64,000 bases of DNA from Lasiodiplodia sp. COLG20. Taxonomy: Eukaryota > Ascomycota > Dothideomycetes > Botryosphaeriales > Botryosphaeriaceae. Made by a program: the position numbers and the translations under genes. The stretch spans positions 992,001-1,056,000 of the forward strand of contig VNWV01000008.1 of the NCBI GenBank assembly GCA_009801085.1. The letters are read 5' to 3'. Numbering within the stretch: the stretch's first letter is position 1; every line of letters begins with the position of its first letter. This document shows, piece by piece, positions 2,874-56,968 of the stretch. Below the pieces are notes generated by a model that did not search any database, was not told the origin of the DNA, and saw only the letters and a list, made by a program, of their open reading frames with translations.

Positions 2874-5800
2874 TTATTCGTCGTCCTTCGATACCGCCGG
2901 TGCTTCGCTCTTGTCCTCCTTGCCGGGGCTAGGTGGGCTGATAATCGTGACTGGGGTTGGGAGCGGCGACTCGGGACGGTCACTGTCCTTCTCCGCATCG
3001 CCCTCCTCCGCGTCCTCCTTCGGCCCATCAGTGTCATCGTCTGCATCGGCATCGGCATCCGGCATTGGCTCATCCTCGTCTTTCTCTGGCGGCGGGCTTG
3101 GTAGCGCAGTCCTCTCGCCATCTGCCTCCGACTCCGTCTTCGTTTGCTCTGATTCAGCCACCGAATCAGTCGTCGTCGCCTCCGTGTGTGCAGTTCCTGG
3201 CCTCGAGTAACCGGTACCCGGGCGCGAATCCGTCCCGTTTTCACCGTCACCTGCGCCAGGTTCCTCCTTGATCGACTCGTCCGCCGTGCTACCGCCTTGG
3301 CGCGCGCGCCTTCTTCTCCTTGCTTCCCGCTCGGTTCCGGCGTTTTCCCTCCTTCTGCGAACACGAATGCTGTCTTCCCTACCGGGTGAATCCGAAACCT
3401 CCGTTCCGTCGCCCCGAAGACCTTGCAGCATGACGGCCGCACGGTCGGCAATGTCCTCGCCCTCGCTGGTTCCGCCATCCTTCTTGTCCTTCTCCTCGCC
3501 ATCGGCCCCGGTATCGCCACTGGCTTCGCCTGACGCAATGCTGTTGGGACTGAGAAGGCCGTTGGCCGCGCTGCTGCCTTCTTCGTCGCCTCCGACTCCC
3601 GGGAGCTCGGGCATCTTCTGCCCACTTGCCACGCGAACCTGGTGACGATCCTTGAGACGGGCGCGGCGGCGACGATCGCGCTGATCGCGGGCCTGTGGTG
3701 CAGCAGCACGCAGCTTCTCCAGCAGAGTGTCCATGGCACCGGTTGACGCAGGGCTGAGCAGCGGGCCATCTGCTGTTGGCGAGCGCGGAGCAGCTTGCGC
3801 AGCCTTGCGGCGCATGGCTTCCTCGTTCCGGCGACGCTGCTCCTCCCATCTGATGTTCTTCTCCCTCGATTTCTGCGCACGGACGTCAGTCAATTCGTCA
3901 ACGAAATAGAATCCACGCAGCAACTTACCTTCCACTCATTAACAAAGACGGCCAGCTTGCTGAAGAAATCCCTCCGTGCATTTTCGTCCGTCGGGTCCTC
4001 ACCATAAAACGTCAGAATGTCGTTATACGTCTTCTTCATGTCCTCGAGGTAGTCCTCCATCGCTTCAGCCTTGCGGCGGGCATCCTTCATGCTGCGCTGA
4101 ACTATGATGCTAACACGATCCTCAGGGTGGAACTTCTTTGGATCACTCAAGTTACCTGAATCCAAACTGGCCTGCACGTTCTTGATGTTGTCGATGTATT
4201 TCTTGGCGTCAGTGCTGAGCTGCTCCACGTTAATCTTCTGCGCAGGAATGACGCCGGCGATTTCTTCCACAAAGCTTTCCCACTCAGAGTACTGGGTGCG
4301 CACGATACGCTCCACGAGATCGGCAAACGTAGACTCGTTCTTGTCATCCTTGACCATTCCAAGACGTGCGAGCGATGACAGCTTGAAACCAGTGGCCTGC
4401 TTGTTTGCGTCGTTCATGTAGTTACCGATATCCAAAATCAGGCCGAGAACGTTCATCAACGCGACGGAATCGCGCAGGGAATCAGAGACACGGACGACTT
4501 CCTGAAGCTTGGTGAAGATGTCGTCATACTCGCTCTCGTACGTCCTGGTAAGGTCGAGAGCCCGCATACGCGCCTTCCAGTAGTGGTGCAACTCGTAGGC
4601 AGTGTACAGATAGATCTGATCTTCCCTGGTGAGCTCATCTGGATTCGATTCGCGCGTAGCATTGGCAGCATCTGGGCCAGTCCAATCCTTGGCATACGGC
4701 GCCATTGACTTCGCGACTTGCTCGGGAATGACACAGAGCTCAGTCCTCTGCAAAAACTCTATGACCACATCGCTCTCGAGGATTGGCTTGTCACAGTGAA
4801 TGATCATGCGGACAAGATCATCGGCGGAAAGCTGGTTGAACTTGGCAAATGCGACGTGGAAGCCCTTGACAAGGTCGTTCGAAATCAGCTGCTTCTTGTC
4901 GTTCTTCGCCGACTGCTTCTTCGCAATCTGTTTGATCTCCTTGGCCAAGAACAACTTCTCAACTTCGTCAAGCACACCCTTCTTGGACAATTCGCGGTAC
5001 TTTTCTTCCTTGGCCTCGTAGGTGGGAGCATGCGCCGCCCACATGGTAACTTGAGGAGTGTCGACCTTCTCCCAATGCAACGCCTTGAGCTTCTTCTTCG
5101 GCCTTGCAACGGCAAGACCAATCTTTTGCGTAGGAGCATAGCCAGGCTGAGGCAAGAATCCAGGTCCACGGCGGGCGCCAGGCATCGGCGGTGCTCCTGG
5201 CGGCGGAGGAGGCGGTGGCGGCCCACCCATTCCTGGCATTGGCGGCGGAGGAGGTGCACCACCCGCAAATCCAGGCATCGGTGGCGGCGGAGGAGCTCCG
5301 CCTGCAAATCCAGGCATTGGCGGAGGTGGCGGAGGAGCGCCACCTGTGAATCCAGGCATGGGCGGCGGCGGCGGCGGAGGCGGGCCATTCATACCAGGCA
5401 TGGGCGGTGGGGGCGGCGGTGGAGGAGCACCATTTTCGAAGCCTGGCATGGACGGGGCGCCATCCATGCCGGGCATTGGAGGCGGAGGAGGCGGCGGGGG
5501 ACCGCTGAACTGCTCAGCGCCGTCTTCAGGCTTCTCGGCAGACTCGGGCTTCTCGCCCTCGGCCTCGTCGTCGCTCTCATCCAGTTTCTTGACCTTCGAA
5601 GCGATCTCTCCAAGAAGAGCACCCTGTTGGGTCGACGACATCTTGGGACGCCTGAGCTCAACGAGACGCGGCTTCTCGACAATCATCTCTTCATCATCGG
5701 CATCCGTGTCATCGTCTCCAGCTCTCTTCGGGACGGGCTTGCGGTTGACGGATCCGAGGAAACTGTTGGTGTAGTCGGCGCGAGCGAATTCTTGCCTGTT

Positions 5801-8470
5801 GCGCTCCTCGTCAAGACCGTCCATCCTCTCACGAAGTTCACGTAGCTTGTCTTCAGGCTCGACCGCCTGCCAGACCTTGCCCTCGAGCTTCGCTTGAGTC
5901 TTGGAGCGCTCGAGCTGCATCTCAAGCTTGTCAAGGAGTTTCTCGCGATCGAGAATGCCTTGCATGAGAGCGGGATCAGTCTGGCCAAGCTTGCCATCCT
6001 TGCCCTTCTTTGCGGCGGCAGAAGCCGCAACGTCCTGAGCATCGCGCAGCATGAGGTAGAGCTCTCTCGTCTCGAGCTCGTTTCGCTGGAGTTCCTTGGC
6101 ACGCACGGTCTGCAGATCTGACAGTTCAGCTTTGAGCTGCTTGATCTGTCTTCCACGAAGCTCCAACAGGGCATTCTGCTCCTCCAGTTGTTTTTGGAGC
6201 TTGCCAACCAGGCCATCTGCGCCCAGCTCGAGCTGTGCTCGCATCTCATCACGCTCCGCAACTGCAGCATCTGCAATCTGTCTAGCCTCGATTGCCTCGT
6301 CTCGAGCCTGGCGTGCCTCCGAGTCTGTGTAAAGCTTGTCCAGCAGACTCTGCACGGTGAAGTTCAGGCTTTGCTTGAGATCCATGTCGGGCAAGCGGCG
6401 GTCCATGGCAACGTAGCTTAGCATGGAGTCGACAAGCTGGAACAACCGAAGTCTATCCTCTCCCTCATTGTCCCGAATGAGCAAGAAATGCTGCATAGCA
6501 GAGACGAAGTAGTCTTGTGCTCTGGTGCCCGAAATCTTGTTTTGGATGGCGTCCACGATCTGGCTCGGGTCATTCATATCCTTTACCTCCCCTTCGATGC
6601 TGTCCACCATACTACTGTTCTCCCTCTCCAACAGATCCTCATAGTCGATGGCCTCATTCGTCCGGTATCTCTCGATCTGCTTGTCAATGACATCGTATTG
6701 GAAGCCTTCCATCTTATTCAAGATGCGCTTGATGCCACATGCTGTGAACTGTGCGCGCAGATGCACACGCAGCTGCAGGTCTCTTTCCGGGGCATCCACG
6801 ATCATGTTGACGAGGAACAGCGATGCGACGGCGTATTCCATGAGCAAGTTCTCGAAGCCAATACCTCCACTCCGAGCTTCGTCGCTGGCCCCGACCAAAC
6901 TGCCCATCTTTCCGCGACCGTCAACGGTAACTTCCACAATACGCATCCAAGCATCGAACCGTCCATTTTCACCTTGTGCCTGTTTCAGTTGATCCAATGC
7001 TTGCAAGACCTTCTCATGGCCCTGGCCGTTCGCCCAGTGGCACAAGAATGTGAGGACTTCGCTGACGAGTTTCCGGGTGTTCAGGCGGGGAGAAACGAGA
7101 GAGCTGGCGAGAGAAGTGACGATTTGAGGGTAGGCCAAGGCATTATCGGCGCCGTATTTGTTGTTCATCAAAGCCTTCAAACATTTGACAATGTCGTACT
7201 CGCGGTCGAGGTCCTTTTCCTGGGTGTTCTGCGATCCTGGTGGTGGTGCTGGGCCCCCTCCTTGTCTCCGGTTGATCTTGTTCAGAACATTCGTGAGCGC
7301 AATTGAGCCCTGCGCCTCGACGAATGCCTTGACCCATCCAATCGGCTGTGTTCTCAAGCTGACACTCAGGGATTGCAGCTGCTTGGCTGTAATCGAGTTG
7401 TCTAGCACTTTCCGCACATACCATTCCGGGCTGCCCTCCTCATCGGAGCGGCCAAGGATCCCCGTCCCATCCACGCTGTACTGTGATTGCCTGGCATTTT
7501 GTCGCCTTCTTTGTTCGCCCTGCCATTCTGCTAGCCGATCTTGATGCACCAATGTCCACTTCTTTGAAATCGGATACGCCTCCATCTGCCGTCTTGCCTG
7601 CTCGGGCAAACTGTTCCAACCACGCTTTTGCATGAGAGCCATGAATTCGAACTCGATTTCCCGGTCATCGTTGGGTCTTTGTAAATGGAATCCAGCGGGG
7701 TCAAAGGAGGCGGCGTTGCCGGGGGCTGGGGCTGGTGCTATCGGTCTTCCATTGACACCAATGGTAGGAAGCAGGGTGTGTTGGTCCATGCCCACGCCCA
7801 GGGTGGCGAAGCTCATCTTTGTGTCGCGGTGGCCGGAGTGGTTCGAGTATACGCTGGCTTGGTCGGACGAGGCGCGAGTGTTGTAGGAGGCCTCGGTGGC
7901 GGCGTAGGATGATCCGTGAGCGTTCGGAGAATAAGGTCGTCCGGAGCTTGTGCTCGGGCGACCTGAACCCCATTGTTGAATGGACACACCTCTGTCGCCA
8001 GGCTGGCTGGAGGCCATGGCGGTGCCTGTAGAGTGTGGAGGGGGTCGCGGCGGGACCGCCACCCCAGGCGGCGGCGGTGCCGAGGGATTAAAGATGGGGT
8101 ATTGGTGAAAATCGGCGCCGCCCTTGTTTAGATGATGTGGTAGCGGCTCGCGGCGGGCGGCGGCTTGGGCAGCAGCTTGGCTGTTGGGCAGGAAATCGAC
8201 AGAGATAGGAGAACGGCCATCGGGAGGGACGCTGTCGTATGGTATGCTGGTCAACACGCCGGCAGTCTGCAGGTGCTCAGGCAGGTAGGAGATAGGCCGG
8301 TTGTTCGGCGAGCCGTTCAGCGAGTTCACGGAAGAGCGGGACTGATGGCGCGAGGAGCCTGCGCTGAGGTTTGATGGCAGGCCGGGCGTCTCGGGCACGT
8401 CGTCCCTGTTCTTGCGCCTCGAAAAGAACGACTTGCCGCCGGACGACTGACGCGACTTGTGGTCGGACAT
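2874..8470 (-). CDS. sepA: Formin (SepA/Bni1-type diaphanous-related formin)
   Basis: Actin nucleator for polarised hyphal growth and septation, inferred from the family. Two exons (8470-3929 and 3872-2874) flank a 56-nt intron with GTAAGT and CAG ends, giving 1846 aa. Visible in order: a disordered basic N-terminus; a Rho-binding/FH3 region from about residue 265 to 690; a long coiled coil at about 705-815; an FH1 region at about 989-1105 with repeated polyproline blocks separated by MPGF/MPGM; an FH2 domain at about 1115-1510 opening with KKKLKALHWEKVD. The second exon adds an autoinhibitory DAD at about 1559 (GAMDTLLEKLRAAAP followed by an arginine cluster). A second DAD-like stretch sits near 1660 (AAVMLQGLRGDG). 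The acidic tail is unstructured. The start ATG at 8470 has no in-frame competitor. Filamentous fungi usually carry one such formin. Confidence 0.95.
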
Positions 8471-27068: not shown

Positions 27069-30000
27069 TTACGAACCAAAATCCATCTTCAACGCAATCG
27101 TCGGCTCACTCTGACTATCCTGCCTAACCGGCACCTTCCTCGCCGGCTGCCCACCACTCCTCACGACGCCCTCCATGAAAGCCCGCTGCTCCGGACTCAA
27201 CCCACCACCCACAACAGCCCTGAAGCTATCCTGCCCGGCGCCGGCCAACTCGATCAGCCGCAACGCCGTCTCCCTGTAACAGCCCTCGCCCTCCTTCGAC
27301 GCGCGCGCTAGCAGCGTCGGCAAGACGAGCGCCATGGCGACGGGGACCTGGTTGGGCTGGAGCGTGCCGACGAGGTTGACGAGGGCGAGCGAGACGACGG
27401 AGCGTGACTCCTCGAGGCCCTCGAGGTCCTCGGGCGGTGGCGACGCGAGGAAGCCGACGCACGTCGGCAGCAGCGCCTTGGCGAGCGCGCCGGCCGTTGC
27501 GGACGCGCTGTCGTCGGTGCGCTTGGGCAGGATTAGCAGCGAGCGGCAGCAGTTGGACGCGACCTTGCTCGTGACGCGGTTCTGCAGGCAGTCGGCGAGC
27601 AGGTCCGTGTAGCGCTTCAAGAGCGGGTCCGATGGGTCGAAGATGCCCGTGGCGTTGGTGAGCAGGATCGTCGTGGCCAGGAGTGTGTTCTTCTCGCATT
27701 GCGGCGCCGCGTCGAATCCGCGCTTCTGGGCGTGCATGATGATCATGAGGAAGCGTTCGAGCGTGCTGCGGAGCTGTGATTGGGTCTCGGGCAACGAGGT
27801 AGTGGCGAGGCTGGATACGAAGCGGCGGAAGATCGGAAGGACCTGTGGAACGACCAGCGTTTGCGTAGACGGCGTTCCGAGGACCTGAATGAAGATCTGA
27901 AGCAGACATGCGTGAAGATCGGTGCGGATGATGGTCGGGAAGACATCAGCAGCATCCACAAGTGCCGACAGGGCGAGCGTGATGAGCTGCACCGACTCGT
28001 CTGTCAAAGAGTGGCGTGCTACAAAAGCGTCAGTATCGAGCCTTTGCGGAAAAGAGATGGAACAAACCTTGTGTGTTGTTATCGCCTAAGCCCGGCACCA
28101 GGCCAGCCAGAACCAGCACCATGATTCGCGTAAGTTCGAAGAGCTGCTCGATGTCGTCCGAAAGTGTCTCTTCGCCGTTCGGCGCACTATGAAGCCCTGT
28201 TAGCAATATTCAGGAAGCTGTGTTGTCCAGTACTGACCTCTGAGTACGCAGGGCACTTGGGTGTGCGAGACACAAGTTCCTGGCGATTTTCACAATGACC
28301 TCCTGCACGTCCAAGCCTTCCGTCAACACCAGTCTGTCCAGCATATCCATCGTCTCCGAGAAAACAACTTCCTGGTAGATGGCATGGCCGCTGACGCTGG
28401 GCTTGAGGATGTTCTTGAGCGCCCTCAGAATCTCCAGCGTATGCTCCTTGTTCGACTGTGAGTCACCCGATGCCGGCCTGCCAGTGGTGACAAGAGCCTC
28501 GAAAGCAAGGCCAAATAGCACGAAAAAGAAGGCGACCGGCTCGTCGCGGTAGTTGATGTCTGCAGCGGGCTTCTTCTCCTTCGACCCATCACCGGACTCT
28601 TCTTCATCGAATTCCTTGCCATCCAGTGCGTCGAACACAAATTCAGCATCTTCATCGATAAGGGAAGCGATGGCATCGACGAGGTTGAGCCAGGAGTCTT
28701 GGTAGAACTACGACAATGTTAGTCACGGCGCCTATTTTCTTCCTTGATAAACTTACCTTTAGCAGCGTTTCCCGGTTCAGTGCGGCGTAGATAGTATCCA
28801 AGCTACCGCTCAAGCTGCCAGCGGCAGCAGTCGTCGAAATGTCAGGCTCAAATCTCAATCGCGCGAACTCTCGAAGTGAGCTCAGCCAGAGCGGTGTCAG
28901 CTTCGCAATGTACGGGCGCAGGACATCAACGAGGTATTTCTGTTCCTTGCTTGCAATTTGCAGCTCGGCCCATGCGCTGAATACAGCCATCTTGACCATG
29001 ACCTGTGCGTTCGAGCTGAGTCCCTTGAGATCGCCGATACTTGCTGTTTCCGAATCGGCAGAGAAATTCTCCAGTGCCTGAACGAGGAGCTTGAGGATAC
29101 GGCCCATGCGATCAACGTCGGTAACGATTCCAGTCGCGATGAAAGTTGCACAGACGTTGACAGCTTCAGCTGCAAGCTCAGGGCTAGAGTCGGCTGCAAA
29201 TGCCGGCGTCAGTGCCGAGCCAATCTGCGCCTGGTACTGCTCCAGAAGCGTAGCCTCCGGGAAGTCGGGATCGGGCGTCTTGCCGAAAGTCTTGAGAACT
29301 TGGTCGACGATTCGCAAGCCTCGAAGACGCAAACCCACAACACCAGCGGTCGACGCTGAGAAGGAAATCCGGACAACATCTGCAATGTGAGCCTGCAGAG
29401 CTTGCTGTGATTTACAATCCTCGCCCTTGAGCGCATAGTCGCGACCAACGATGGTGAGGAGCTCTGACAAGAGGTCCATTGCGAATGTGCGGACTTGCCA
29501 ATTCAGGAGTTCCTGCGTTTGAGAGGTGGAACCACCGTCGTCGCCCTGCGCTCCCGCAGAGGCGGCAAATCCAGCAACCTCCTCGTCTTGCAGCTCCGGC
29601 ACACCGCCTGTATGCGCAGTCTTTGGCTTCGAAGGGGGTGCATTCTCCTTGTTTTCAGGCTGCTTCATGATCTTGGTAAGGGCAGTGTTGCAACGCTGGA
29701 CCCATTCGAGAGTATTGGAGAGTGCAGTCTGATGAAACCAGTTACGGAGGATGCTACGAATAACCTCGTGATGAGGGTTCTGATTGAGAATGAGCCAGAG
29801 CTGATCTTCCAGACCCGGGTCCGCAGTGCGGATAATTTCCTCGGCGTTACGCCGCATGAGGTTGTGGAGACCGTCAATGGCCATGTCTCGGATACGCGAT
29901 GACGGAGAGTCCAGGTCCTTCTGCAGCCCCTTGACATAAGCGGCAAAGTCCATATGCCCAGGTGCGTAGAGGGAGAGATGCTCCTGACACCGGAGGCTCT

Positions 30001-33000
30001 CAACGAGAACCAAAAGTTCCGACTCGTGCAGGAACTGAGAGATGAGCGTCATGATGAGATCGCGAGCCTTGGACATGTCTTGAAGATCCGGACCAAGCAC
30101 GTTGATGATGCTATCGACGCAGCGAGTGATGACGGCAGGTGTCGGAAGATCAACTTCCATGTTGGATGACGCAAGAGACGCAATTTCCTCGCTGTGTGTT
30201 TCCGCCATGTACAGCTGGGCCAGCATTCCGAGAGAGCTGGTGACAAATCCGGAGAAACTCAGACCAGCCGAGTCGGCCACGCGCGAAAGACTATCCAGAG
30301 CCCAGAAGTGGACAGAAGGATGGGGATCGCTGGCCAAAGACATGAGGATGCTGAGGATATTCTTGAGATGAAAGCCAGCTGCCATGCCACCGAGCTGTGA
30401 ATGGATAGAACCGAGTGCTACAGCACATCCAGCGCGTACATTAGGCTCACGGTTGGCAACGATCTGTTCCACAAGGAAATTGACTTCTGCACTGGTGAAA
30501 GTGTTTCCAGAGCTGGCGCAGAGGCGGCCCAGAGCTTCACAGGCTACGTGGCGCACGTATTGATCCGTGTCGATAATGAGGGTCTGTATCTGGTTAGTTT
30601 ATATGTATTTGCCACAATTGAGGCACTCACATGTAGCATCTCCTCCATGACCTTCTCCACCGCCTGTCCCTTGAGATCGCCAGGAGCAGAAAGCGTTTCC
30701 TTGTTTGCAACCTTGAGAGCGCCAAGAAGGGCCGTAGCAACGTTGACAGTTATAGCAGCCTTTCTAGCAGGATCTCTGATCAAGCTGTTTGCGGACATGA
30801 AAGATGTCATCTGCTCTAATATACTCTCTTGAACCTTTGGTGTCTGCAGAGGAAGCAAGATGGCAAACAGGTTGAGGGCGGCATTGACAACTTCAGTGGC
30901 AGGCGGGTCGGGAAGCTCATCATTATCGGTATCCTTGCCAATGTAGAGCGATATAGAGTCGTGCTCTCTGGCATTGCAAATAGGGGACAGAAGCTGACAG
31001 ACTTAGCAAAATTCTTGTATGGATGGGGATCCTGCACTTACAGCAGCATCAGCCGCGTACTCGGGGCCCGGCTTCGAGGTCCAGTGTTTCCTGCCTGATT
31101 CTCCAAGCTCACCCGCTAGCGGCTTGAGATCAAAGCCCTGTACCAGACCAGTGACACCAAAGCCGTAGTTGTCACCAACATCCCAAATGCTCTCGAAAGT
31201 GCTGGCTGAGCTGGCAATCGACACGCTCAACGAACTCGGTGCGTAGTTATCGGGGTCAGCAAAAGAGGAGACAGCAAAAGGAAGCAGGTTGGTCTGCAAC
31301 AGCATTTCGTTGTTTCCGGCTGGGCTGAGGTTGACGAGCTTCGTGTAGCATTGCAGCACCCGGCGACGCACCATCAGATCAAAGTCGTGCAGCTGGAGAG
31401 CCGAAGACAAGCGCTGGGAGATATCATCCGTGGTCTTCTTAGCGGGAAGGCTGTTCAGGAACATGGTTGTGTTTTGCAGCATGGCGGCCAGACGCTTCGT
31501 GACATCGGTCGTGAGGAGGCGGTTGTTGAATTCGAGGAAGGTCAGAACGGAGCCAAGAGCGCACTCGCGGACATGAGCGAGGAAGCTGAGGTCAAGAAGG
31601 TTCCTGGATGTCATGCTGTCCTTGTTCAGCGGCTTGGGCAAGGCGTTCTTCCACAACAGAAGCAGCTGCGAGAGATGAATCTTGACAAAGTTTGGTCCAA
31701 GAGTCATCAAGCCTCCGATGAGGATCCACGCGACCTGAATCTGAGTGCTGGAGATCCTGATATCGGAGCTGCTGCTGCTCTTAAGCAGGGTTGTGGCCTG
31801 CTGAAGGACTCTCGAGTTGACGTCGACAGAGCCGTACAAAGGCTGAGCGGAGCTGGTACTGAGCACAGCGGAAAGACCATTTGCAAAGCCAACGCACTTC
31901 CTCGGTGATGGACGGGGACCAGTGAGTTGCCCCAATTCGCGATTGACGCTGTTCATACAGATTGTGACAGCCGGGATCAATTGCTGAGGGCATGCAAGGA
32001 CGAATGCGCGGAGGCACGAAGAGGCGTGCACCTGCACGGTGTAGCTGGGGTGTTGCAGAACACCAATCAACGCCTCTCTGCAGAGTTCGGCGATGGAGTT
32101 TGTAGCTGAGCCGAGATTCCGGATCAGAGATGTCAAGGCCGTCAATGCGCCCGTCAGGGTCTGCTTGCTCGGCTCAGGACGCTCCTTCAGGGCCGGAGGA
32201 TAGTCCTTCAGGATTTCATTGAGCAGGTATTTAGCGGCATTGAGCTGGGCGGTTTCACCCAAAATCTGGCGTCCGACCACATCCTCCAGAATGAGGCGCA
32301 CAAAACGGCGGGTGATGAGTTGACGGTACCGGTTGTTGACAATGGGTGCAGCACTCAGTACATCGACGAAGAGGCTCTTTGCAACGTCACCGTACTTGTT
32401 CTCAATCACGCTTTTGGGGAGACCCCTCATGATCTTCATGTAGCAGACCGCAATAGCCGTACGAGCACGATTGCTTGTAGCGGTCTTGGTATAATGCGTG
32501 GACAGCTGCTTCAGCAACTCGGGAAGCGCAAAAGCCAATTGAGTAATGGGCTTGGTCGGTGCGGGAGATCCGGGCCTCTCTGCCATTTCTTCGTCGGCAT
32601 CTTGCACAACCGACTGCCTCTTGGACTTCTTCGGCTTCTTGATCCGGGGCACAGGGTCCGTCACGGGGAATTCCGAGTAGCTCTTGACCAACGAAGCCGC
32701 CAGGGCTGAGGCTGCAGCGTGCCTCACGGTCGGGGAAGAGTTGTCGACGGCCTTCCAGATGACAGTTTGTAGCTTGTCGAAGTCGTTCGAGTTGTCAAAG
32801 TACGGGGTATGGCGGACCAATTGCTCAAGGCACCAGCAAGCAGCACTCTGCACAGCATGACTCTTGTCACCGGAGGCCGCAGTTCGCGCCTGCTTCCAGG
32901 TATCACGAGCAACTTGCTCATCCAACAGCCTCGAAACGCCCTTCGCGATGCGACCGAGCGCGCGAAAGACGGCGGCGCGGAAACCGGTGTGGTTCTGGGC

Positions 33001-33528
33001 ATTGGCCTTGAGCTGTCGGAGCAGCGTCAAAGTCGCGAGGCCTGAAGGGCCAATGGCGCTGTCGCCAGCGGACTCCATTATGGCGCCCAGGCAGTGCACA
33101 GCGGCGTGCTTGGCCTTGAGCTCCTTGTCGCCCTTGCTCGAACTGCTCATGATGGCGACCAGCTCGTTGATGCTCTCGAACAGCAACTTGCGGTCGCCCT
33201 TGGCGAAGACATCGGCGAGCGCGCGGCCAACATTGCTGCGGATTACGCGGGTGGGTGCAGGCGACGAAAGGTTTATGACCTTGAAAGCCTCCTTTTTGAC
33301 GTAGATCTGGTGTGCGGAGGCGCCGTCAGCGTCAAGGCTGGCCGCATGACGGGCGAGATCGGCGGTGAAGGTGAGCAGGTAGAGCTCCTGCTGCTCCGAC
33401 GGAAGCGCATGCAGCTTCGTAACATCGAGGTCGGGGTTGGTCTCGTGGCCGGAGTTTGGGAGCGACGGAGGGGGGGCGATGCTGCCGCTGTCGCTCGAGG
33501 GAGGGGGAGGCGCGTCGGTGGAAGCCAT
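27069..33528 (-). CDS. LAA1: HEAT-repeat protein, Laa1/HEATR5 family
   Basis: Six exons (33528-31042, 30993-30631, 30589-28757, 28707-28238, 28186-28068, 28018-27069) sum to 6222 nt, 2073 aa, close to yeast Laa1. At the fifth exon the acceptor at 28187 is required, because the nearer CAG would bring in a stop. The whole product is HEAT/ARM-type helices with no catalytic motif. Family-typical stretches include the early AIMSSSSKGDKELKAKHAAVHCLG-type repeat, VRHVACEALGRLCASSG, and the late KARDLIMTLISQFLHESE. Laa1/HEATR5 proteins accompany the AP-1 clathrin adaptor at the trans-Golgi and endosomes. A basic and acidic loop (RIKKPKKSKRQ, then DADEEMAERP) near residue 300 is probably exposed. It sits head-to-head with TACO1 across under 260 nt. 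Confidence 0.88.
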
Positions 33529-45437: not shown

Positions 45438-45477
45438 CGCGGCGATCCCTCGACCAAGGCTCCTCTTTTCTTCTTCA

Positions 45478-45626
45478 GCTCTCTTTGCCTTTTGGCTTAG
45501 ATCAAGTGTAGTAACTGTTCTTTCCAGCTTAATCTCTGGAACGTCCCTACGGGGGCTTGTTACCCAGAAAACCAAATTTTGGAACCGGGTGGCTGGTCAC
45601 TGAGCTCCGCTCATACTAGCTACCAC
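45478..45626 (+). ncRNA. U2 spliceosomal snRNA
   Basis: U2 pairs with the intron branch site during splicing. All parts of U2 are readable. The 5' domain TCTCTTTGCCTTTTGGCTTA followed by GATCAAGTGTAGTA matches yeast U2 over more than 30 nt, and stem-loop I is GCC-TTTT-GGC. The branch-site-recognition GTAGTA is at 45508-45513. Stem IIa is TTCCAG / CTGGAA with an eight-base loop, as in other U2s, and stem IIb is TCCC-TAC-GGGG. The Sm site AAATTTTGG is at 45574-45582. The 3' stem pairs 45588-45597 with 45615-45624 (ten pairs, two G-U) and encloses a smaller GAGC / GCTC stem. The base after GTAGTA is A where U is usual. Ends are estimated to a few bases. No other feature explains this block. Confidence 0.93.
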
Positions 45627-45671
45627 AGTGTCGCTCGTATTGCACTACTTCGGGCTGACGCGACCAATCCT

Positions 45672-45719: not shown

Positions 45720-48047
45720 GTTTTCTGGTCTTATTTGACTTGACTTGGTACGCTGGCATCGCTTTGAGACACGTCGTTGCGCCGGTCGAGTCTTCTGTGC
45801 GTCATGCTGCGCGTCGCTAGTTGGTGCTGACGAGCACACATGGGCGCTCGCAGGCCATCACAGCAATAGTAGCAGTAAATAACTTCACTTTCATGGAACG
45901 TCTATTTTTCTATGTGCCCTGTCGGTGCACTGCGCGTTGCCTTTGTAGCTGTGAAGTGTCTGGTCGCAAAGTGACGCTGTTCGCCGTGCACTGCCCGCAA
46001 CTGCGCGGCCGCCCAGCCTTAGGCGTCGCGGAGAGCTTCTGAGTGAGGCTGTCCGTAACTGCGGGCCTTGATGCATTTTTGATCGTGATGACGTCCGCCG
46101 CTCTGCGCTGCCTGCAGGACAGAGCCTCTGTGTTCGACGAGCGACGGGCGGGCAGCCGCGCACCACGAAATGTACGCTCGACCCAGAGTGATTCGCATCT
46201 GGGGGTGACGCGACGTACGTGTGGCCTCCGACTTCAACTTGATCCGTATTCTGAGCGGGCGGGCATTCCTAGCGCAATGCCAATGTCCTTTCGATTCGAG
46301 GCATTCCGGCCTGGTCAGATGCGCAGCGCAGACATTTCTGCCTCAACGACACGGCTCACGATGCTTGGCCTGGTGTTGCAGCGCGCTCACCCCTACTCCG
46401 GCCGTCACGGGACCCCCGCCGCCCAGCAGAGGCAGCGCTGCATCAGAACCCCGGCGAGAAGCCGCCTCATGCGCCCGCCGCCTGTCGTGCTCGCTGTCTC
46501 CGTGGCCTCGGATTTCGCGTCAAAAGTGAGCCGCCGGAGGCGAAGGTCTTTGCGCACTTCGTCTCCCAACATTTAGCCACGTTTGCGTCACCTCTGGTGT
46601 CTTCTGTTGGGGTCGCGAGTGCGTCATGTTGAGAAACTTCAGTGAAAGCCATGTGCACCGGCGTTGGCGGACAAGGAATTGCGCGTGGAAGCAAACACCG
46701 TGCTCAAGCAGGCGATTGTTGTGCCCAAGCAAGCACGCAAATCGTGCAATGCCGGAAATGAGCAGATGTCCACTCCATGAATATGCCCCCTCCAGACCGT
46801 GGTCTTCCTGTTCTTTGTGCTTCCAAGAAGTCAAACGTGCGCGTTTCCACATGGTCGACGCACAGAGGCCGAGACCTGTGTCGCCGCTGATGCGCAAATT
46901 CATCGCCAGGTCAAATACGCAAGATTCCGTGTCCATGGGCAGAAATTGTGAGGTGAATGCTGTGGACATGGACACAAGTGCTCGCTTCACCCAGTCAAGC
47001 TTGAAATTTCTCTGGCGCGGCTGCATTGTTGTTGCGACTGAGCCTGGACGCTAAACGACCCCGCGGCGCTGCGCTAGAGGGCGCGCTGTCTACTCTTATT
47101 CCGACGAGGCTTGGTCCTCACTGTAGCTGTCTGTCGCGCAAGTCTGGCGCGCACAATGGCGTTCACTCTGAAGTGCGGTCGGGGTGATGTCTATTCATTC
47201 AACTACACGTCCGCTTGTGACTTTGTCATGCATGCGACATTATTTGAAGCTTCGCGTGTGAAACTTCGCCTAAGGCCTAGCAACGAATGCCTGTCCACTA
47301 TGAAACCCCCCAGAAGCTCCCTCCCATTATCTGTGACTTCCTTCTTCCTCCGGATCCGAGGCTGAGAAGATGTCTGTACGCTCGCAGTTATGATTGACGC
47401 AGGAAACCTCGAGTCAGAGAGTCGTGGAAGTGACGCGAGATCAGCAGAATACTTGCAAAGCTGTCGGAAAGAAGCGCTGAAGACACGCGCGGAGCGGGAT
47501 CGTGGTGGAGTCTGGGGAGGAGGACGCGTCTAGACCTGCAGCGATGTAGCATGCCTGGCGCTTGACGGGGGAGAGTGATGAAGAGCCTCACCGTGCTTGT
47601 ACATAGAGAGAGCGCATGCTCTGGAGGATGCTGGCGCGCGGCGATTCGTAGAGACTGCCCTCTGTTGCGATGCGCAGGTGTTGTTTGCCTCATTCTCCGC
47701 CAGATTTTATGCGCGCATGGCCGCCAATTGTCGCGCGTGTGTGAACTCTAGGAAATAAGCGCATCTGTCAGAAAACGATGGCGCGTTGGCGCGACTGGGA
47801 GGCAAGGCTGCTCAGCCGTGGCGGTCCAAGACGAAGCGCTCGCGCGTAGAATATCTGGTGGTGAAACAGCGCCGTTCGTCGTCGTGACCTGTCGAGCGCG
47901 CGTGAAGATATCGGTGGAGTCAGGATATTGCGCTGGGCGATTCAAAGGCAACGCTGCCTCGCATTTCGTCGTCTCACCCGCATACCAGAGACCGGATAAC
48001 GTCGTCTTGCTCACTGTGGACTTCAGCTTGTTTCAGTGCCACATGGC
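45720..48047. other. Gene-poor region between U2 and U2-like array
   Basis: No supported gene. Open frames are short, overlapping and domain-free on both strands. Confidence 0.45.
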
Positions 48048-48090
48048 TCTTCCTTGAGGATCCGCGCAAGGCGAAGCAATCAACGAAAAG
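48048..48090 (-). promoter_or_regulatory. Conserved snRNA downstream element, unit A
   Basis: On the minus strand: CTTTTCGTTGA, spacer, TTCGCCTTGCGCGGATCC, then AAGGAAGAG. Placed just after the second 3' hairpin of unit A. Confidence 0.45.
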
Positions 48091-48300
48091 AAAGGATCTC
48101 ATAGATCAAAGTTTCCAAAAATTCGAGGTAAAAACCCCATAGTAAAAAAGGGATCTCATGGATCCAGGTGCCAAAAATTCCCGGAGAAAACCCCGGAGCC
48201 GTCATTTCCCCCTAGTTCTTGGCTGACGTTGCCACCTCTCGGAAAGAAACAAGAGGAACAGTAACTACACCTGTGGAAGAGAGAAAGGATTTGAAGGAAG
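48091..48300 (-). ncRNA. U2-like snRNA unit A (degenerate, duplicated 3' part)
   Basis: Minus-strand unit with branch-recognition-like GTAGTTACTG (48268-48259). A hairpin at 48181-48196 (6 pairs, TTTT loop, one G-U only on the minus strand) is followed by Sm site AATTTTTGG (48179-48171) and a GGATC / GATCC hairpin. A second Sm site (48123-48115) and GATCT / AGATC hairpin follow, so the 3' part is duplicated. Stem-loop I is not recognisable, and the nearest TATA-like ACATAAG (48306-48312) is too close for a full 5' domain. Probably a decayed copy or pseudogene; transcription is unknown. Confidence 0.55.
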
Positions 48301-48490
48301 GAGGACTTATGTAGGCGAAGTTCGGCAGATGGAAGCACGGGCCCGATCAGCTCTCGTGAACCTGACGTCGCGAGGGGCAACCCACAGCCTTTTACACTCG
48401 AACACAAGCCGCGCATAGGCGGGCAAGTCTCCAGAAGGTTCTACGAAGGCAACAGCAAGGTCTGCAAGGACTGGCATTGCTGAAAATCTA

Positions 48491-48535
48491 GCTCTTCTTC
48501 GAAGTTCCGCGCAAGGCGAATTCATCAATGAAAAG
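48491..48535 (-). promoter_or_regulatory. Conserved snRNA downstream element, unit B
   Basis: Minus strand: CTTTTCATTGATGAATTCGC, then CTTGCGCGGA and GAAGAAGAG. It begins about 6 nt after the 3' hairpin of unit B. Confidence 0.45.
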
Positions 48536-48673
48536 AATGAGATCTTGTAGATCTGAAGGTTCCAAAAATTCCCCGGACGAGTCCGGAGCCGCCTTTCAGC
48601 ATTCAGTGGATTGGCTGGACGTTGCCAAGAACAGTTACAACAAGTTGATCTAAGCCCAAAGGCAAAGAGAGCT
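48536..48673 (-). ncRNA. U2-like snRNA unit B (variant branch-recognition)
   Basis: Minus-strand unit of about 138 nt. The 5' end TCTCTTTGCCTTTGGGCTTA then GATCAA is nearly identical to the intact U2. GTAGTA is replaced by GTTGTA (48641-48636), followed by the shared ACTGTTCTT. A stem IIa-like TTGGC / GCCAA follows, then a hairpin CCGGA-CTCG-TCCGG (48586-48573), a perfect Sm site AATTTTTGG (48570-48562) and a short AGATC / GATCT hairpin at the 3' end. The TATA box lies 40-47 nt before the 5' end, as in U2. The 3' domain is much shorter than in true U2. It could be a functional variant or a pseudogene still under a good promoter. Confidence 0.7.
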
Positions 48674-48712
48674 GAAGAAGAAGAGAGAAAGGACCAAAGG
48701 AAGGAAGGGTGC

Positions 48713-48720
48713 TATATATA
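48713..48720 (-). promoter_or_regulatory. TATA box of U2-like unit B
   Basis: TATATATA-type box followed by a CT-rich tract, at the same distance to the snRNA 5' end as in the intact U2. Confidence 0.55.
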
Positions 48721-48770
48721 GGCGAGGCCCGAGGTCCGATCGTAGTCAGCTGGAGCAAAGTGATTGCAGC

Positions 48771-48814
48771 CTCTTCCTCGAAGATCCGCGCAGAGGCGAA
48801 TTCATCAACGAAAA
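48771..48814 (-). promoter_or_regulatory. Conserved snRNA downstream element, unit C
   Basis: Minus strand: CTTTTCGTTGATGAATTCGC, then CTCTGCGCGGATC and GAGGAAGAG. It follows the unit C hairpin by a few bases. Confidence 0.45.
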
Positions 48815-48815
48815 G

Positions 48816-48923
48816 AATGAGATCTTGAAGATCTTGATGGTTCCAAAAATTCCCGATGGACGAATCCACCGAGGGAGAAAAAACAGTTACTACACAGAGC
48901 GAGCGGCCAGGGAGGGATGAAGA
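48816..48923 (-). ncRNA. U2-like snRNA unit C (short)
   Basis: Minus-strand unit of about 108 nt. Branch-recognition GTGTAGTAACTG is intact (GTAGTA 48893-48888). Stem-loop I is diverged (ATCCCTCCCTGGCC). Stem IIa is missing. A hairpin CGGTGGA-TTCG-TCCATCG (48871-48854) has a UUCG loop and one pair that is G-U only in the minus-strand RNA. The Sm site AATTTTTGG (48851-48843) and an AGATC / GATCT 3' hairpin follow. The TATA box lies 41-48 nt upstream of the 5' end. It is compact but has every element needed for an Sm-class RNA. Confidence 0.62.
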
Positions 48924-48963
48924 AGAAGAAGAAGAGGAGGAGGAAAGATCGAAGGAAGACAGG

Positions 48964-48971
48964 TTTATATA
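48964..48971 (-). promoter_or_regulatory. TATA box of U2-like unit C
   Basis: TATATAAA-type box on the minus strand with a CT-rich tract after it. Spacing to the unit C 5' end matches the other units. Confidence 0.55.
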
Positions 48972-49301: not shown

Positions 49302-49382
49302 AATTTTTGGAAACCGCTGGCACTCAGCTGAATCGCTTTTCGTTGACTTGAACTCGCCTTGTGCGGGTCGTCAAGGAAGAGC
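49302..49382 (+). ncRNA. Partial U2-like snRNA unit D
   Basis: Plus strand, opposite to units A-C. Sm site AATTTTTGG (49302-49310), short GCTG / CAGC hairpin (49316-49328), then the conserved downstream element (49336-49382: CTTTTCGTTGA, CTCGCCTTGTGCGGG, AAGGAAGAG). No GTAGTA-like block or TATA box is found upstream, so only the 3' part is recognised. Probably a truncated copy. Confidence 0.45.
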
Positions 49383-54400: not shown

Positions 54401-56968
54401 TGCCTGTTTGGAGCGACACTGACCTGCACGGCGCGAAATGGCGGATGATGACACTGCTGAAGATCTGACACAGGACGCGCAGCTTGAATGATGCGCGACG
54501 GAGCAGTCAGATGGCTCACGAGTCACGCTGGAGAGTGCGATCGCGTCGGCGGCCATCGCTTTTTTTTGTCAGACGAAGCAGGAAATCTTGAGTTAGCGGC
54601 GGACGAGCGCGGTCGCCAAGACTTGGGGGTACTTACTTGCAGCGAGGCTGCATTAGTGTTGCAGACTCTACAAGCATTAACCACGAGAATTTGCGGGCTT
54701 GGGAGGTCATGGTCATGGTTTCGCGGTCGCGACGTGGAAGTGATGGCGGAGCAGGACGGGAGGAGGAGCGGGGCAGTGGATGCCACAACAACGCGCGAGC
54801 CCGCTCAACGCGCGACGCGCTCGCGGGATGGGCCAGCATATCAGTTTAGGAAGAGCGCACCTCTGGCGGGAGACACACGCCCCGCTGCGTCCTCGTCATG
54901 TCGCTGCTGCTCGATATCCATCTGCCCGATCGTGCTAATCATGTCAAGGGCCAGCGAAGCCAACTCCTGTCGCCGTTGGCCTCCAAGTGACCCTCTCCAG
55001 CATCATCAAGTACTATGTGCCAGGCTGCCGCGCCTAAAGCTGACGCGATTCTGGCGCGCACACCATCGAAGCGGCGTGGCATCAAAGGAAGCAGCTTCAT
55101 GCCAGAGGTCAAGTGAGGCGACTTCAGACGGACCTCATGAAGCGCGAGGAGTAGGTCCTCTTGTTAATCAACAGCGTCACTGATGCAAGGCATTGGCACT
55201 GCTAGGTGGAAGCGGCCTGATTGCGACAATTGGACTGATTCTTCCTCGAGCTCCCATTCTTGATGAGAGGATCAACGAGAAATAGTAATTGGAATGTCTG
55301 TGTGCTTATGATGGCACCTGAGTATAGAAAACTCGGATGTTGTCGCAAAGCTCACAATTTGCTCTCGGACCTTGCACTGCGATGAAGCCACATGAGGAAG
55401 ACAACATCGTGATTGAGCAGGTCCTGATGCTGCGAAAACATCAGTGTAGATGGTGTCTATAAGGAGGAGGGGGACTCACCTGATGAAGTGAGGGGAAGCA
55501 TGAAGGAAAGAAAAGTCAGAAAGGCAAAAGATGGGCGAAATAAATAGGGCGAGGAGGGTGTCCTGATCAACTACCAGCTGCTCGATCACCCAAGCGATCA
55601 CCTACGCTAAACCCTTTCCGTTTGTATGGCTACTAATCGTGCCAGATCACCAGCAGAGGGTCGTAAGCACGCCTGGATCATTCGCTAAATACGGTAGCTG
55701 CTGCCTGCCTGGCAGGGCGGAGAATTATGCAATGCATAGAGTTATGCAGGCTCGTCTGGCTCAGCCCCCCGACAAGAGGTGACAATGGCACAGCAGTGGG
55801 ACACAGCAAGGGTCGAGAAGGCTCTGAACTGCCTCATGCATGCAATCCTCTACATGCTCCTAAGTCTGTGCGCTGGAAATTGCTCTACTTAAGACAGCAT
55901 TCGCCGGGCTCCAGCTCATGACATCCACTGACATGAATAAAAGCGACAGGTCGATCATCAGAAGTGAATCCTCATCAATTGTTCCTCCTGCCGTCTAAAT
56001 TAGCTCCCGATCATGCCAGTGACAGGGTCGGCACAACAAGACTCGGTATCGACCATTCGCCTGGTCTCCACCCCTTCAAAAGGCTCTCTGCAGGTGGCAA
56101 GCCCCTCTTCGATCTTAAATGACCAATCGCGACGGCTTGCGCCCTGGTAGAGCGTGGGAATGGCAGCATCGTCGAAAAGTCCTCCACTGGCGGCTCATCG
56201 CTACGACACAATCCGCTCTGCCCGCCGCCACGACGCAGTCTCTCAGTGGAGCTTGGAAGTAGTGAATATGAGCGAGGGCACGGTGACAATGGAGATGGTA
56301 GCAGAAAGCACACAGCCAATGCTAAAGGGGGAGGAATAGTCATGGCGAGCAGGACAGTCATGATAGCAAGGAACCAATGGTGCGGCGTAATGAGTGAGCA
56401 TTCTGCTGCAATGCTTCACCTTGGCTTTCTTGCTCGCAGGATGTCAAGCAGTTGCTTTCTTGAATTGCTTTCGTGAGGTGAACTGTCTAACGTGAGGCGT
56501 ATGAAGCTGATGAAGGTTCACGTTTCAAGCACACGACTGAGCCTCCCAATGGACTTCCTCTGATTCATGACCCAGACCTCAGTAAATGTCGGCGTAACCA
56601 TGCCACAGCCCTCTCTCTCTTTTTCTTATGATAGACCATCCATGAAGGAAAAATTCACGCTGACCTTTGACTTCGATGCTCCATTGTATGATAGTTTTAC
56701 TAGGAGCCTGGCAGGATAAGACCTTATGCGCTCGTTCAGCAAAAAGGAAATGATAGTGCCAGGGTGAGGATTCACGGTTTTACTTTACGAAGGCTGGAAG
56801 AGATTTTTTTGAATTTGTCGTGAACTATGTGCATGGAATTTTTCCCTTTTTCATAATATTTCCTGGCTCCCTGAAACATGATCATAACTTCGAAGAGGGC
56901 TTTTGACTGTGCGGAGGTGTTGGCCATGGTGTCTTTTTTTCTTTTCATTGGAAGTGCGGACTATCTAC
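51480..56968. other. Gene-poor region, weak candidates only
   Basis: A 5.5-kb stretch ending at the RidA stop codon. Apart from the small frame at 51995, nothing recognisable. Longer frames at 54.0-55.2 kb overlap on both strands and lack domains. A TATA-like box with a CT-rich tract lies on the minus strand near 55.54 kb. Confidence 0.45.
51995..52204 (+). CDS. Candidate small gene, unrecognised
   Basis: ATG-led frame of 69 aa (MPPNSAPPPHHGG, later FHCVVVHAGEVYTFNES). A typical intron (GTGAGT at 51927, ACTGAC branch, CCCTAG) ends just before the ATG and could be a leader intron. The stop overlaps a possible GTGAGA donor. No family match; it could equally be chance. Confidence 0.25.
   Translation: MPPNSAPPPHHGGSNVTAENLLALGTIAPGASSLHLSFHCVVVHAGEVYTFNESISHVVEWVMLLPDGL

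What the first reader, a model, noticed from the sequence alone, without database searches (positions are those of the whole stretch)
48048..48971. Tandem array of divergent U2-like snRNA genes
Units C, B and A lie head to tail on the minus strand. Each keeps a GTAGTA-like block, a hairpin, a perfect Sm site AATTTTTGG, a short 3' hairpin and the same downstream element; B and C also keep a correctly spaced TATA box. Their sequences differ a lot outside these elements, which is unlike recent neutral copies. They have a much shorter 3' domain than true U2. This could be a family of variant U2 or U2-derived Sm RNAs not yet described in fungi.
Basis: partly seen in the sequence, partly recalled or inferred. 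Interest (0 to 1): 0.85.

Follow-up and report, generated by a model that had tools for sequence, protein, structure and literature searches.

The report
Expanded fungal family of U2-like RNAs
The three tandem units are real copies derived from a splicing-RNA gene (U2) and belong to a large, scattered family in one fungus in which the part that reads introns has changed in many copies while the rest is kept; whether these variants are active is not yet known.

Summary
AATTTTTGG occurs 5 times in the window, all here (chance mean 0.41). A fourth, weaker unit, D, lies on the plus strand. The 3' element is a covarying RNA hairpin shared by this genome's U1, U2 and U4 genes, resembling fission-yeast Pac1 (RNase III) sites. 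The genome holds at least 33 dispersed U2-type genes (U4 2, U5 1, U6 1 found). Their flanks are nearly all unrelated, stems IIa/IIb are kept by compensatory change (0 of 5000 shuffles as good), and 18 of 33 have a non-GTAGTA branch box although the 5' end and Sm site barely vary. A-D belong to a group of 8 short units without stems III/IV. Best reading: expressed U2-derived snRNA-type genes, B a minimal U2, A and C 5'-truncated possible branch-site competitors. Against: no transcripts or relatives could be checked, and introns matching the commonest variant box are not abundant. New variant of a known kind; function unproven.

The parts
48965..48971 (-). unit C TATA box TATATAA
   Evidence: TATA to GCTCTC distance is 47-54, median 48, in the 27 of 31 loci where both were located
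48884..48893 (-). unit C branch-recognition box GTAGTAACTG
48852..48873 (-). unit C hairpin directly before the Sm site
   Evidence: fold (38 of 500 shuffles as low)
48843..48851 (-). unit C Sm site AATTTTTGG
48821..48833 (-). unit C short hairpin after the Sm site (GATCTTCAAGATC core)
   Evidence: (0 of 500 shuffles)
48771..48815 (-). unit C 3' hairpin element
   Evidence: model R1, 53.6 bits
48714..48720 (-). unit B TATA box
48661..48672 (-). unit B U2 5'-end block GCTCTCTTTGCC (U2/U6 helix II segment)
48632..48641 (-). unit B branch-recognition box GTTGTAACTG
48611..48628 (-). unit B stem IIa equivalent TTGGC/GCCAA
48571..48588 (-). unit B hairpin directly before the Sm site
   Evidence: fold (energy not unusual: 185 of 500 shuffles as low for the 45 nt)
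48562..48570 (-). unit B Sm site AATTTTTGG
48541..48553 (-). unit B short hairpin after the Sm site
   Evidence: (2 of 500 shuffles)
48492..48535 (-). unit B 3' hairpin element (the G.G mismatch of the aligned copies reads A.A)
   Evidence: model R1, 45.0 bits
48307..48313 (-). unit A TATA-like box TACATAA
48259..48268 (-). unit A branch-recognition box GTAGTTACTG, at or next to the predicted 5' end of the RNA
   Evidence: start site inferred from spacing
48180..48197 (-). unit A hairpin before the first Sm site
   Evidence: fold; not tested against shuffles on its own
48171..48179 (-). unit A first Sm site
48152..48164 (-). unit A hairpin after the first Sm site (GATCCATGAGATC)
48115..48123 (-). 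unit A second Sm site
48095..48107 (-). unit A hairpin after the second Sm site (GATCTATGAGATC)
   Evidence: (36 of 500 shuffles)
48047..48090 (-). unit A 3' hairpin element
   Evidence: model R1, 57.0 bits
49302..49310 (+). unit D Sm site AATTTTTGG
49316..49328 (+). unit D possible hairpin after the Sm site
   Evidence: weak, 89 of 500 shuffles as low
49336..49381 (+). unit D 3' hairpin element
   Evidence: model R1, 54.3 bits
45475..45669 (+). full-length U2 gene of the same family (GTAGTAACTG)
   Evidence: RF00004, 129.9 bits
45673..45717 (+). 3' hairpin element of that U2 gene
   Evidence: 59.5 bits (this copy was in the model)

Best explanation
Units A-C, and perhaps D, are snRNA-type genes derived from U2 and belong to a diversified U2 family of this fungus. 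Inferred working: RNA polymerase II starts about 47 nt after a TATA box; the RNA takes an Sm ring at AATTTTTGG; the downstream hairpin is cut by an RNase III (Rnt1/Pac1-like) enzyme and trimmed to the short hairpin after the Sm site. This gives small Sm RNPs that present a U2-type branch-recognition box. B keeps the U2 5' end, stem I, the U6-pairing segment and stem IIa and could work as a minimal U2 with an altered box. A and C keep the box at or near the 5' end but lack the sequence of the U6-pairing part and stems III/IV, so they could bind branch sites without catalysing: competitors or brakes on U2. Shown: elements, family, covariation. Inferred: transcription, processing, Sm binding, and the competitor role (about one chance in four on its own).
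For: Element counts against shuffles; 3' hairpin model hits A-D; that hairpin covaries (8 of 16 pairs with double changes in 26 sequences) and follows all 31 U2-type loci (28 by pattern, unit B among them; L029, L030 and L032 by model), 6 of 7 U1 matches and 2 of 2 U4 genes, but not U5 or U6. TATA spacing in 27 of 31 loci. Eight short units genome-wide against 2 with the reversed pattern (the pattern itself demands the Sm site). IIa and IIb pairing exceed all of 5000 shuffles. Flanks: similar in 2 of 465 pairs upstream, 0 of 465 downstream; transcribed parts of 33 genes have median identity 74%. RNase III domains are present. Pac1 binds U1, U2, U4 and U5 genes of fission yeast, with hairpins predicted directly downstream (PMC8421224, passages).
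Against: No expression data. D lacks a recognised TATA box and 5' part, and its folds are no better than shuffles. A and C are not reported by Rfam U2. The pre-Sm hairpin of B is not unusual by energy. Of the other short or related units, the pre-Sm 45 nt of L054, L058 and L072 are matched by 219, 426 and 133 of 500 shuffles. Related genomes could not be searched, so conservation is only between paralogs, where gene conversion can mimic constraint. The intron survey gives no clear target class for the commonest variant box.
Confidence: 0.55

Rival explanations
1. Units A-D are decaying U2 copies (pseudogenes) left by duplication and non-homologous recombination. They keep promoter, Sm site and 3' hairpin because they are fairly young or are refreshed by gene conversion from live snRNA genes.
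For: D has no recognised promoter or 5' part; A and C lack the U2/U6 region; L044 shows that broken snRNA copies exist here (inverted partial U1 beside L041); by eye, some full-length copies share blocks of stem III in a mosaic way; L038 is U2-type at both ends but has no TTTTGG Sm core.
Against: Each of A, B and C keeps TATA, Sm and 3' element together although their sequence between these has diverged; the 3' element of B changed both sides of its mismatch; flanks of family members are almost all unrelated (2 of 465 pairs upstream, 0 of 465 downstream), so most copies are not recent. That the 8 short units have perfect Sm sites is no argument here, as the pattern demanded it.
Confidence: 0.27
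2. The family is a set of working alternative U2 snRNAs whose branch boxes fit different branch sites; A-C are its most reduced members and act in splicing of special introns.
For: 18 of 33 full-length U2-type genes have a box other than GTAGTA, while the 5' end, GATCAAG, Sm site and stem IV stay nearly constant (mean minor-letter fraction 0.041, 0.055, 0.014, 0.085, against 0.204 in the box; 31 rows). U1 also has variants, whereas only 2 U4, 1 U5 and 1 U6 were found among the candidates scored. The dominant branch motif CTGAC would pair better (G-C instead of G-U) with the GCAGT- boxes.
Against: Introns with CTTAC, the fit for the commonest variant GAAGTA, are few: 204 pattern matches against 140 in the control, versus 900 against 147 for CTGAC; in the local 193 kb sample CTTAC has 3 matches against 27 in the control. 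SF3B1, the protein that holds the branch helix, gave a single match.
Confidence: 0.2
3. They are non-spliceosomal Sm RNAs that took over the U2 promoter, Sm and 3' cassette for another job, comparable in kind to nematode SmY or metazoan U7.
For: Eight short units share little more than Sm site, a short segment and the 3' element; I saw no branch box in L055 and L072, and by eye L054, L057 and L058 have a long-range stem closing directly before the Sm site.
Against: A, B and C do keep a recognisable branch box where U2 has it, and L054 and L057 have GAAGTA/GAAGTG-like boxes.
Confidence: 0.15

Closest known systems
U2 spliceosomal RNA (Rfam RF00004)
   Same: B: 5' end, stem I, GATCAA, branch-box position, IIa, Sm site. 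The full-length genes also have stems III and IV (L038 and L069 are too divergent to be sure).
   Different: A-D lack stems III/IV (the U2A'/U2B'' binding part, recalled); A and C lack stem I and the U6-pairing sequence; boxes are GTTGTA (B) and GTAGTT (A), only C has GTAGTA; B scores 35.2 bits against a cut-off of 46.
U12 snRNA and trypanosomatid U2 (recalled, not fetched)
   Same: Shorter U2-type RNAs with a reduced 3' part and, for U12, another branch box.
   Different: The sequence derives from this fungus's own U2; no U12 match was found in the window; the rest of the genome was not searched for U12.
Variant U1 snRNAs of human and planarian (PMC13172311 and PMC5159530, search listing only; PMC6312358, passages)
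   Different: Here it is mainly U2, in a fungus, with deep divergence and compensated stems.
Nematode SmY RNAs (recalled)
   Same: Small multi-copy Sm-class RNAs with short hairpins.
   Different: No trans-splicing link known; derived from U2.
Fission-yeast Pac1 3' processing hairpins (PMC8421224, passages) and budding-yeast Rnt1 sites (recalled)
   Same: A hairpin directly downstream of Pol II snRNA genes.
   Different: Here one conserved-sequence hairpin, with a G.G mismatch invariant in the 26 aligned copies, serves U1, U2 and U4; its 16 consensus pairs are fewer than the 23-32 nt stems reported for fission yeast, and it was not found at U5.

Membership tests
U2 snRNA (units A-C) | Score over the Rfam RF00004 cut-off (46 bits) | tested here: not met
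   B 35.2 bits, A and C not reported
U2 snRNA (units A-C) | GUAGUA branch box | tested here: inconclusive
   C GTAGTA; B GTTGTA; A GTAGTT
U2 snRNA (units A-C) | 5' end, stem I and U2/U6 segment | tested here: inconclusive
   B yes; A and C lack the sequence; RNA duplex energy with U6 -17.5 for the U2 5' end, -12.9 for C, -10.5 for A, no shuffle control
U2 snRNA (units A-C) | Stems III and IV after the Sm site | tested here: not met
   only 24-27 nt lie between the (last) Sm site and the 3' element in A, B and C (coordinates)
U2 snRNA (33 full-length genes) | Rfam cut-off, 5' block, Sm core, stems IIa, IIb, III | tested here: met
   30 of 31 matches over the cut-off (the other is unit B); 3 more read from 3'-element loci, not scored by Rfam; GCTCTCTTTGCC in 30 of 33 and TTTTGG in 31 of 33, L038 and L069 lacking it; IIa/IIb covariation; stem III folds lower than at least 190 of 200 shuffles in 21 of 32 located
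U2 snRNA (33 full-length genes) | GUAGUA branch box | tested here: inconclusive
   15 of 33 have it, 18 do not
Pol II snRNA gene class of this genome | TATA box about 48 nt upstream and 3' hairpin element | tested here: met
   A, B, C; in D only the 3' element was found
Sm-class RNA | Sm site flanked by hairpins | tested here: met
   (hairpins no better than chance in D, pre-Sm one also in B)
Sm-class RNA | Binding of Sm proteins, TMG cap | not testable with these tools
   needs immunoprecipitation
Pseudogene | Free decay of all functional elements | tested here: not met
   A-C keep TATA, Sm and 3' element; D is undecided

The most novel reading that the evidence does not exclude
This fungus runs a diversified U2 repertoire: dozens of U2 snRNAs that keep the spliceosomal scaffold but carry different branch-recognition boxes, plus miniature U2-derived Sm RNAs (A-D and four others) that bind branch sites without catalysing, so that branch-site choice is shared out and tuned among RNA paralogs.
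Probability: 0.27. Interest if true: 0.9.

Novelty: new variant of a known kind. Interest (0 to 1): 0.72.

Why it matters
The U2 branch box is generally regarded as one of the most constant sequences in eukaryotes (recalled). A genome where more than half of the U2-type genes found have changed exactly there, with promoter, Sm site, stems and 3' hairpin mostly kept, would be a natural experiment on how much branch recognition can vary, whether one cell can run several U2s, and how new Sm RNA classes arise from a spliceosomal RNA. Small-RNA sequencing would test it directly.

Tried and rejected
Chance: rejected. Recent tandem duplication only: rejected, the family is dispersed and the flanks are almost all unrelated. 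Retroposed copies or a SINE-like element: unlikely, since promoters and the downstream element travel with the genes (inferred). Minor-spliceosome U12: no match in the window.

Branch-site test: a home-made intron caller found only 18 and then 7 introns, too few; a motif count on 193 kb and two genome-wide pattern counts replaced it and gave no support for a large CTTAC class. Their reversed controls are imperfect: ACTTAC is the reverse complement of GTAAGT and inflates the CTTAC count with palindromic pairs.

A tree of 31 U2-type genes (L038 and L069 left out) has few supported branches (3 starred of 28); it needs 9 changes of box class at the least, but recombination makes this unsafe. One script was an empty placeholder. 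Searches for the U2 5' end in the bacterial/archaeal genome and viral contig collections found nothing. Rfam on 13 further loci gave, besides the known U1, U2 and U5 entries, only snoRNAs in L101. Where a locus had several TATA candidates the one nearest 47 nt was counted, which narrows the spread a little.

Full report
What is there. Each has a TATA box, a CT-rich leader, a GTAGTA-like box, a hairpin, AATTTTTGG, a short GATC hairpin and one common downstream element. All five AATTTTTGG sites of the window lie in these units; 100 shuffles give a mean of 0.41 and at most 3. The downstream element occurs 5 times, 4 in A-D and one behind a full-length U2 gene at 45475-45669, against none in 100 shuffles.

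The downstream element. I aligned 26 of the 35 copies then in hand from U1, U2 and U4 genes (the window's full-length U2 gene included, A-D left out; nine near-duplicate or long-looped U2 copies dropped). They form a hairpin of 16 consensus pairs, 8 of them with changes on both sides in at least one sequence, and a G.G mismatch invariant in these 26. Unit B has A.A there. The covariance model hits A, D, C and B at 57.0, 54.3, 53.6 and 45.0 bits, and a further site E at 55239-55282 at 39.9; the next match is 20.4. The element follows 31 of 31 U2-type loci (28 by pattern, unit B among them; L029, L030 and L032 by model), 6 of 7 U1 matches and 2 of 2 U4 genes (the match printed for L044 belongs to its neighbour L041), and not the single U5 or U6. 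One copy lies about 640 nt downstream of a C/D snoRNA cluster in L101. In fission yeast the RNase III Pac1 associates with the U1, U2, U4 and U5 genes, and hairpins are predicted directly downstream (PMC8421224, passages). The genome has 7 matches to the RNase III domain, one in a 386-aa open frame that is an Rnt1-like candidate by size only. That the hairpin is an RNase III site is inferred.

The family. Rfam U2 finds 31 places in the 43.5 Mb genome, 30 over the cut-off, with 46 of 483 candidates scored, so this is a lower bound. Unit B is the 31st. Three more full-length U2-type genes came from the 3' element pattern (loci L056, L069, L085); Rfam was not run on these three. That gives 33. 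For comparison, with 41-47 of 767-2400 candidates scored each time: U1 7 matches, all under the Rfam cut-off and one a broken inverted copy; U5 1; U4 2; U6 1. The U2-type genes lie on contigs C1, C12, C34, C56, C67 and C78. GCTCTCTTTGCC is present in 30 of 33 and the Sm core TTTTGG in 31 of 33; L038 has none and L069 reads TTTTTTG. Their transcribed parts have a median pairwise identity of 74% (33 rows; 2 of 528 pairs reach 95%). In the 31 loci the regions beyond the promoter are similar in 2 of 465 pairs upstream and 0 of 465 downstream, against 76 of 465 promoter pairs (blastn, E up to 1e-5).

Selection on structure. Distinct stem IIa sequences (13, L038 dropped) pair at 66 of 78 positions against 48.2 on average and 61 at most in 5000 shuffles of partners; distinct stem IIb sequences (17, L038 and gapped L029 dropped) at 75 of 85 against 56.7 and 70. 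L037 and L056 have replaced most of IIa and still pair at 6 of 6. Stem III folds lower than at least 190 of 200 mononucleotide shuffles in 21 of 32 genes where it was located; 11 do not reach that, and L038 was not located. Paralogs exchange sequence, so these figures show constraint on the family rather than 33 independent tests.

The branch box varies. In 31 rows (L038 and L069 left out as hard to align) the mean minor-letter fraction is 0.041 in the 5' end and stem I, 0.055 in GATCAAG, 0.204 in the branch box with its neighbouring bases, 0.097 in the TGTTCTT that follows, 0.014 in the Sm site, 0.085 in stem IV, 0.203 in IIb, 0.226 in the IIa stem, 0.265 in stem III and 0.325 in the free linker. 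Of 33 genes, 15 have GTAGTA; 5 GAAGTA, 2 GAAGTG, 3 GCAGTG, 1 GCAGTT, 2 GTAGCT, 1 GTATTT, 1 GCAGTA (L085, read by eye), and 3 (L037, L038, L069) cannot be assigned. Strong conservation upstream and moderate conservation downstream, with a box that varies as much as the compensated stems, is not what simple decay gives; relaxed constraint on the box alone would also fit.

The short subfamily. AATTTTTGG(A/C)A followed within 20-50 nt by TTTTC(G/A)T occurs 8 times in the genome against 2 for the reversed pattern: A, B, C, D, L055, L057, L058 and L072. They leave no room for stems III and IV (24-27 nt between the last Sm site and the 3' element in A-D). L057 and L058 are tandem neighbours; L055 is the neighbour of L054, a longer relative that keeps a stem IV-like block. 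L072 and A have two Sm-like sites. Post-Sm segments are matched by 36, 2, 0, 89, 34, 42, 10 and 1 of 500 shuffles for A, B, C, D, L055, L057, L058 and L072; the 45 nt before the last Sm site by 10, 185, 38, 366, 24, 8, 426 and 133. So D is weak at both, and several pre-Sm hairpins are not unusual by energy. By TATA spacing (27 of 31 loci located, 47-54 nt to GCTCTC), B would start at the U2 5' end, C some 25-31 nt before its box, and A at or next to its box. A and C thus lack the sequence that pairs with U6 in U2; predicted duplex energies with U6 are -17.5 for the U2 5' end, -12.9 for C and -10.5 for A, without a shuffle control. B has the U2 5' block unchanged.

Do introns match? By pairing rules GAAGTA would fit CTTAC branch sites and GCAGT- would fit CTGAC. 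Genome-wide, GTAAGT...RCTGAC...CAG has 900 matches against 147 in the reversed control; RCTTAC has 204 against 140, part of which are palindromic pairs. In 193 kb of held sequence CTGAC has 44 against 16, CTCAC 30 against 15, CTAAC 16 against 14 and CTTAC 3 against 27. CTGAC is the main branch motif; a large CTTAC class is not seen; a small GCTTAC class is not excluded. SF3B1 gave one match. So the alternative-branch-site reading has no positive intron evidence yet.

Organism. SF3B1 is closest, among the named hits in the best 120 listed, to Phyllosticta citriasiana (84%), Aplosporella prunicola (82%) and Coniosporium apollinis (81%), and to an unnamed sequence at 92%, which suggests a dothideomycete near Botryosphaeriales; for a HEAT-repeat protein of the window the closest organism-named hits in the best 120 were Coniosporium uncinatum and Geoglossum umbratile, both 64%. 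This rests on two proteins. No related genome could be searched here, so conservation across species is untested.

Literature. Eight searches of the held open-access library for U2 variants, fungal snRNA families and snRNAs in this group listed no report of such a family: 4 of 4 papers listed; 20 of 37; 20 of 20; 20 of 330; 20 of 21; 5 of 5; 10 of 756; 10 of 10. Variant U1 snRNAs in human (search listing only) and planarian (PMC6312358, passages) are the nearest idea. The passages I saw of a Neurospora snoRNA paper mention U2 as a methylation target (PMC2780460).

Verdict. That A-C make Sm RNAs is likely but unproven; what they do is open. I commit to snRNA-type genes, with A and C as possible branch-site competitors and B as a minimal alternative U2, and rate decay of once-working copies as the main rival.

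Noticed in passing
window 55239-55282 (-), with a TATA-like box at 55539-55546 and a GT-AG stretch at 55430-55479: A further 3' hairpin element (39.9 bits) behind a unit with a TATA-like box and a possible short intron; no AATTTTTGG and no Rfam match there.
   Followed up: partly
L101 (C12:4705000-4707000): The same 3' hairpin lies about 640 nt downstream of a cluster of C/D snoRNAs (Afu_300, Afu_513, snR75), so it may be a general Pol II small-RNA 3' element here.
   Followed up: partly
L096, L094 (1042-1085), L097, L098, L099, L100, L102: Strong 3' hairpin elements (46.8-61.8 bits) in stretches without an Rfam match; several follow units with a TATA-like box and no evident Sm site.
   Followed up: partly
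L045, L089/L046, L044 beside L041: U1 variants: one with 5' end AAACTTACCGG, one without a recognisable 5' splice-site box but with an Sm-like site and 3' hairpin, and a broken inverted partial U1 copy next to another U1 gene.
   Followed up: partly
L090 and L091 (C1 near 1496.8 kb and 1603 kb): Two further tandem pairs of U2-derived or snRNA-like units, L054 with L055 and L057 with L058; by eye L054, L057 and L058 share a long-range GGTTTCG/CGAAACC-type stem closing before the Sm site.
   Followed up: partly
genome G000: Branch motif is mainly RCTGAC among the motifs counted (900 against 147 control matches), so canonical U2 would pair by a G-U wobble at that position.
   Followed up: partly
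L049 and L048: Two rather different U4 genes, both with the 3' hairpin.
   Followed up: no
window 3890-8470 (-) and 28652-33528 (-): Ordinary protein genes in the window: a diaphanous-type formin and a HEATR5/Laa1-type HEAT-repeat protein.
   Followed up: no
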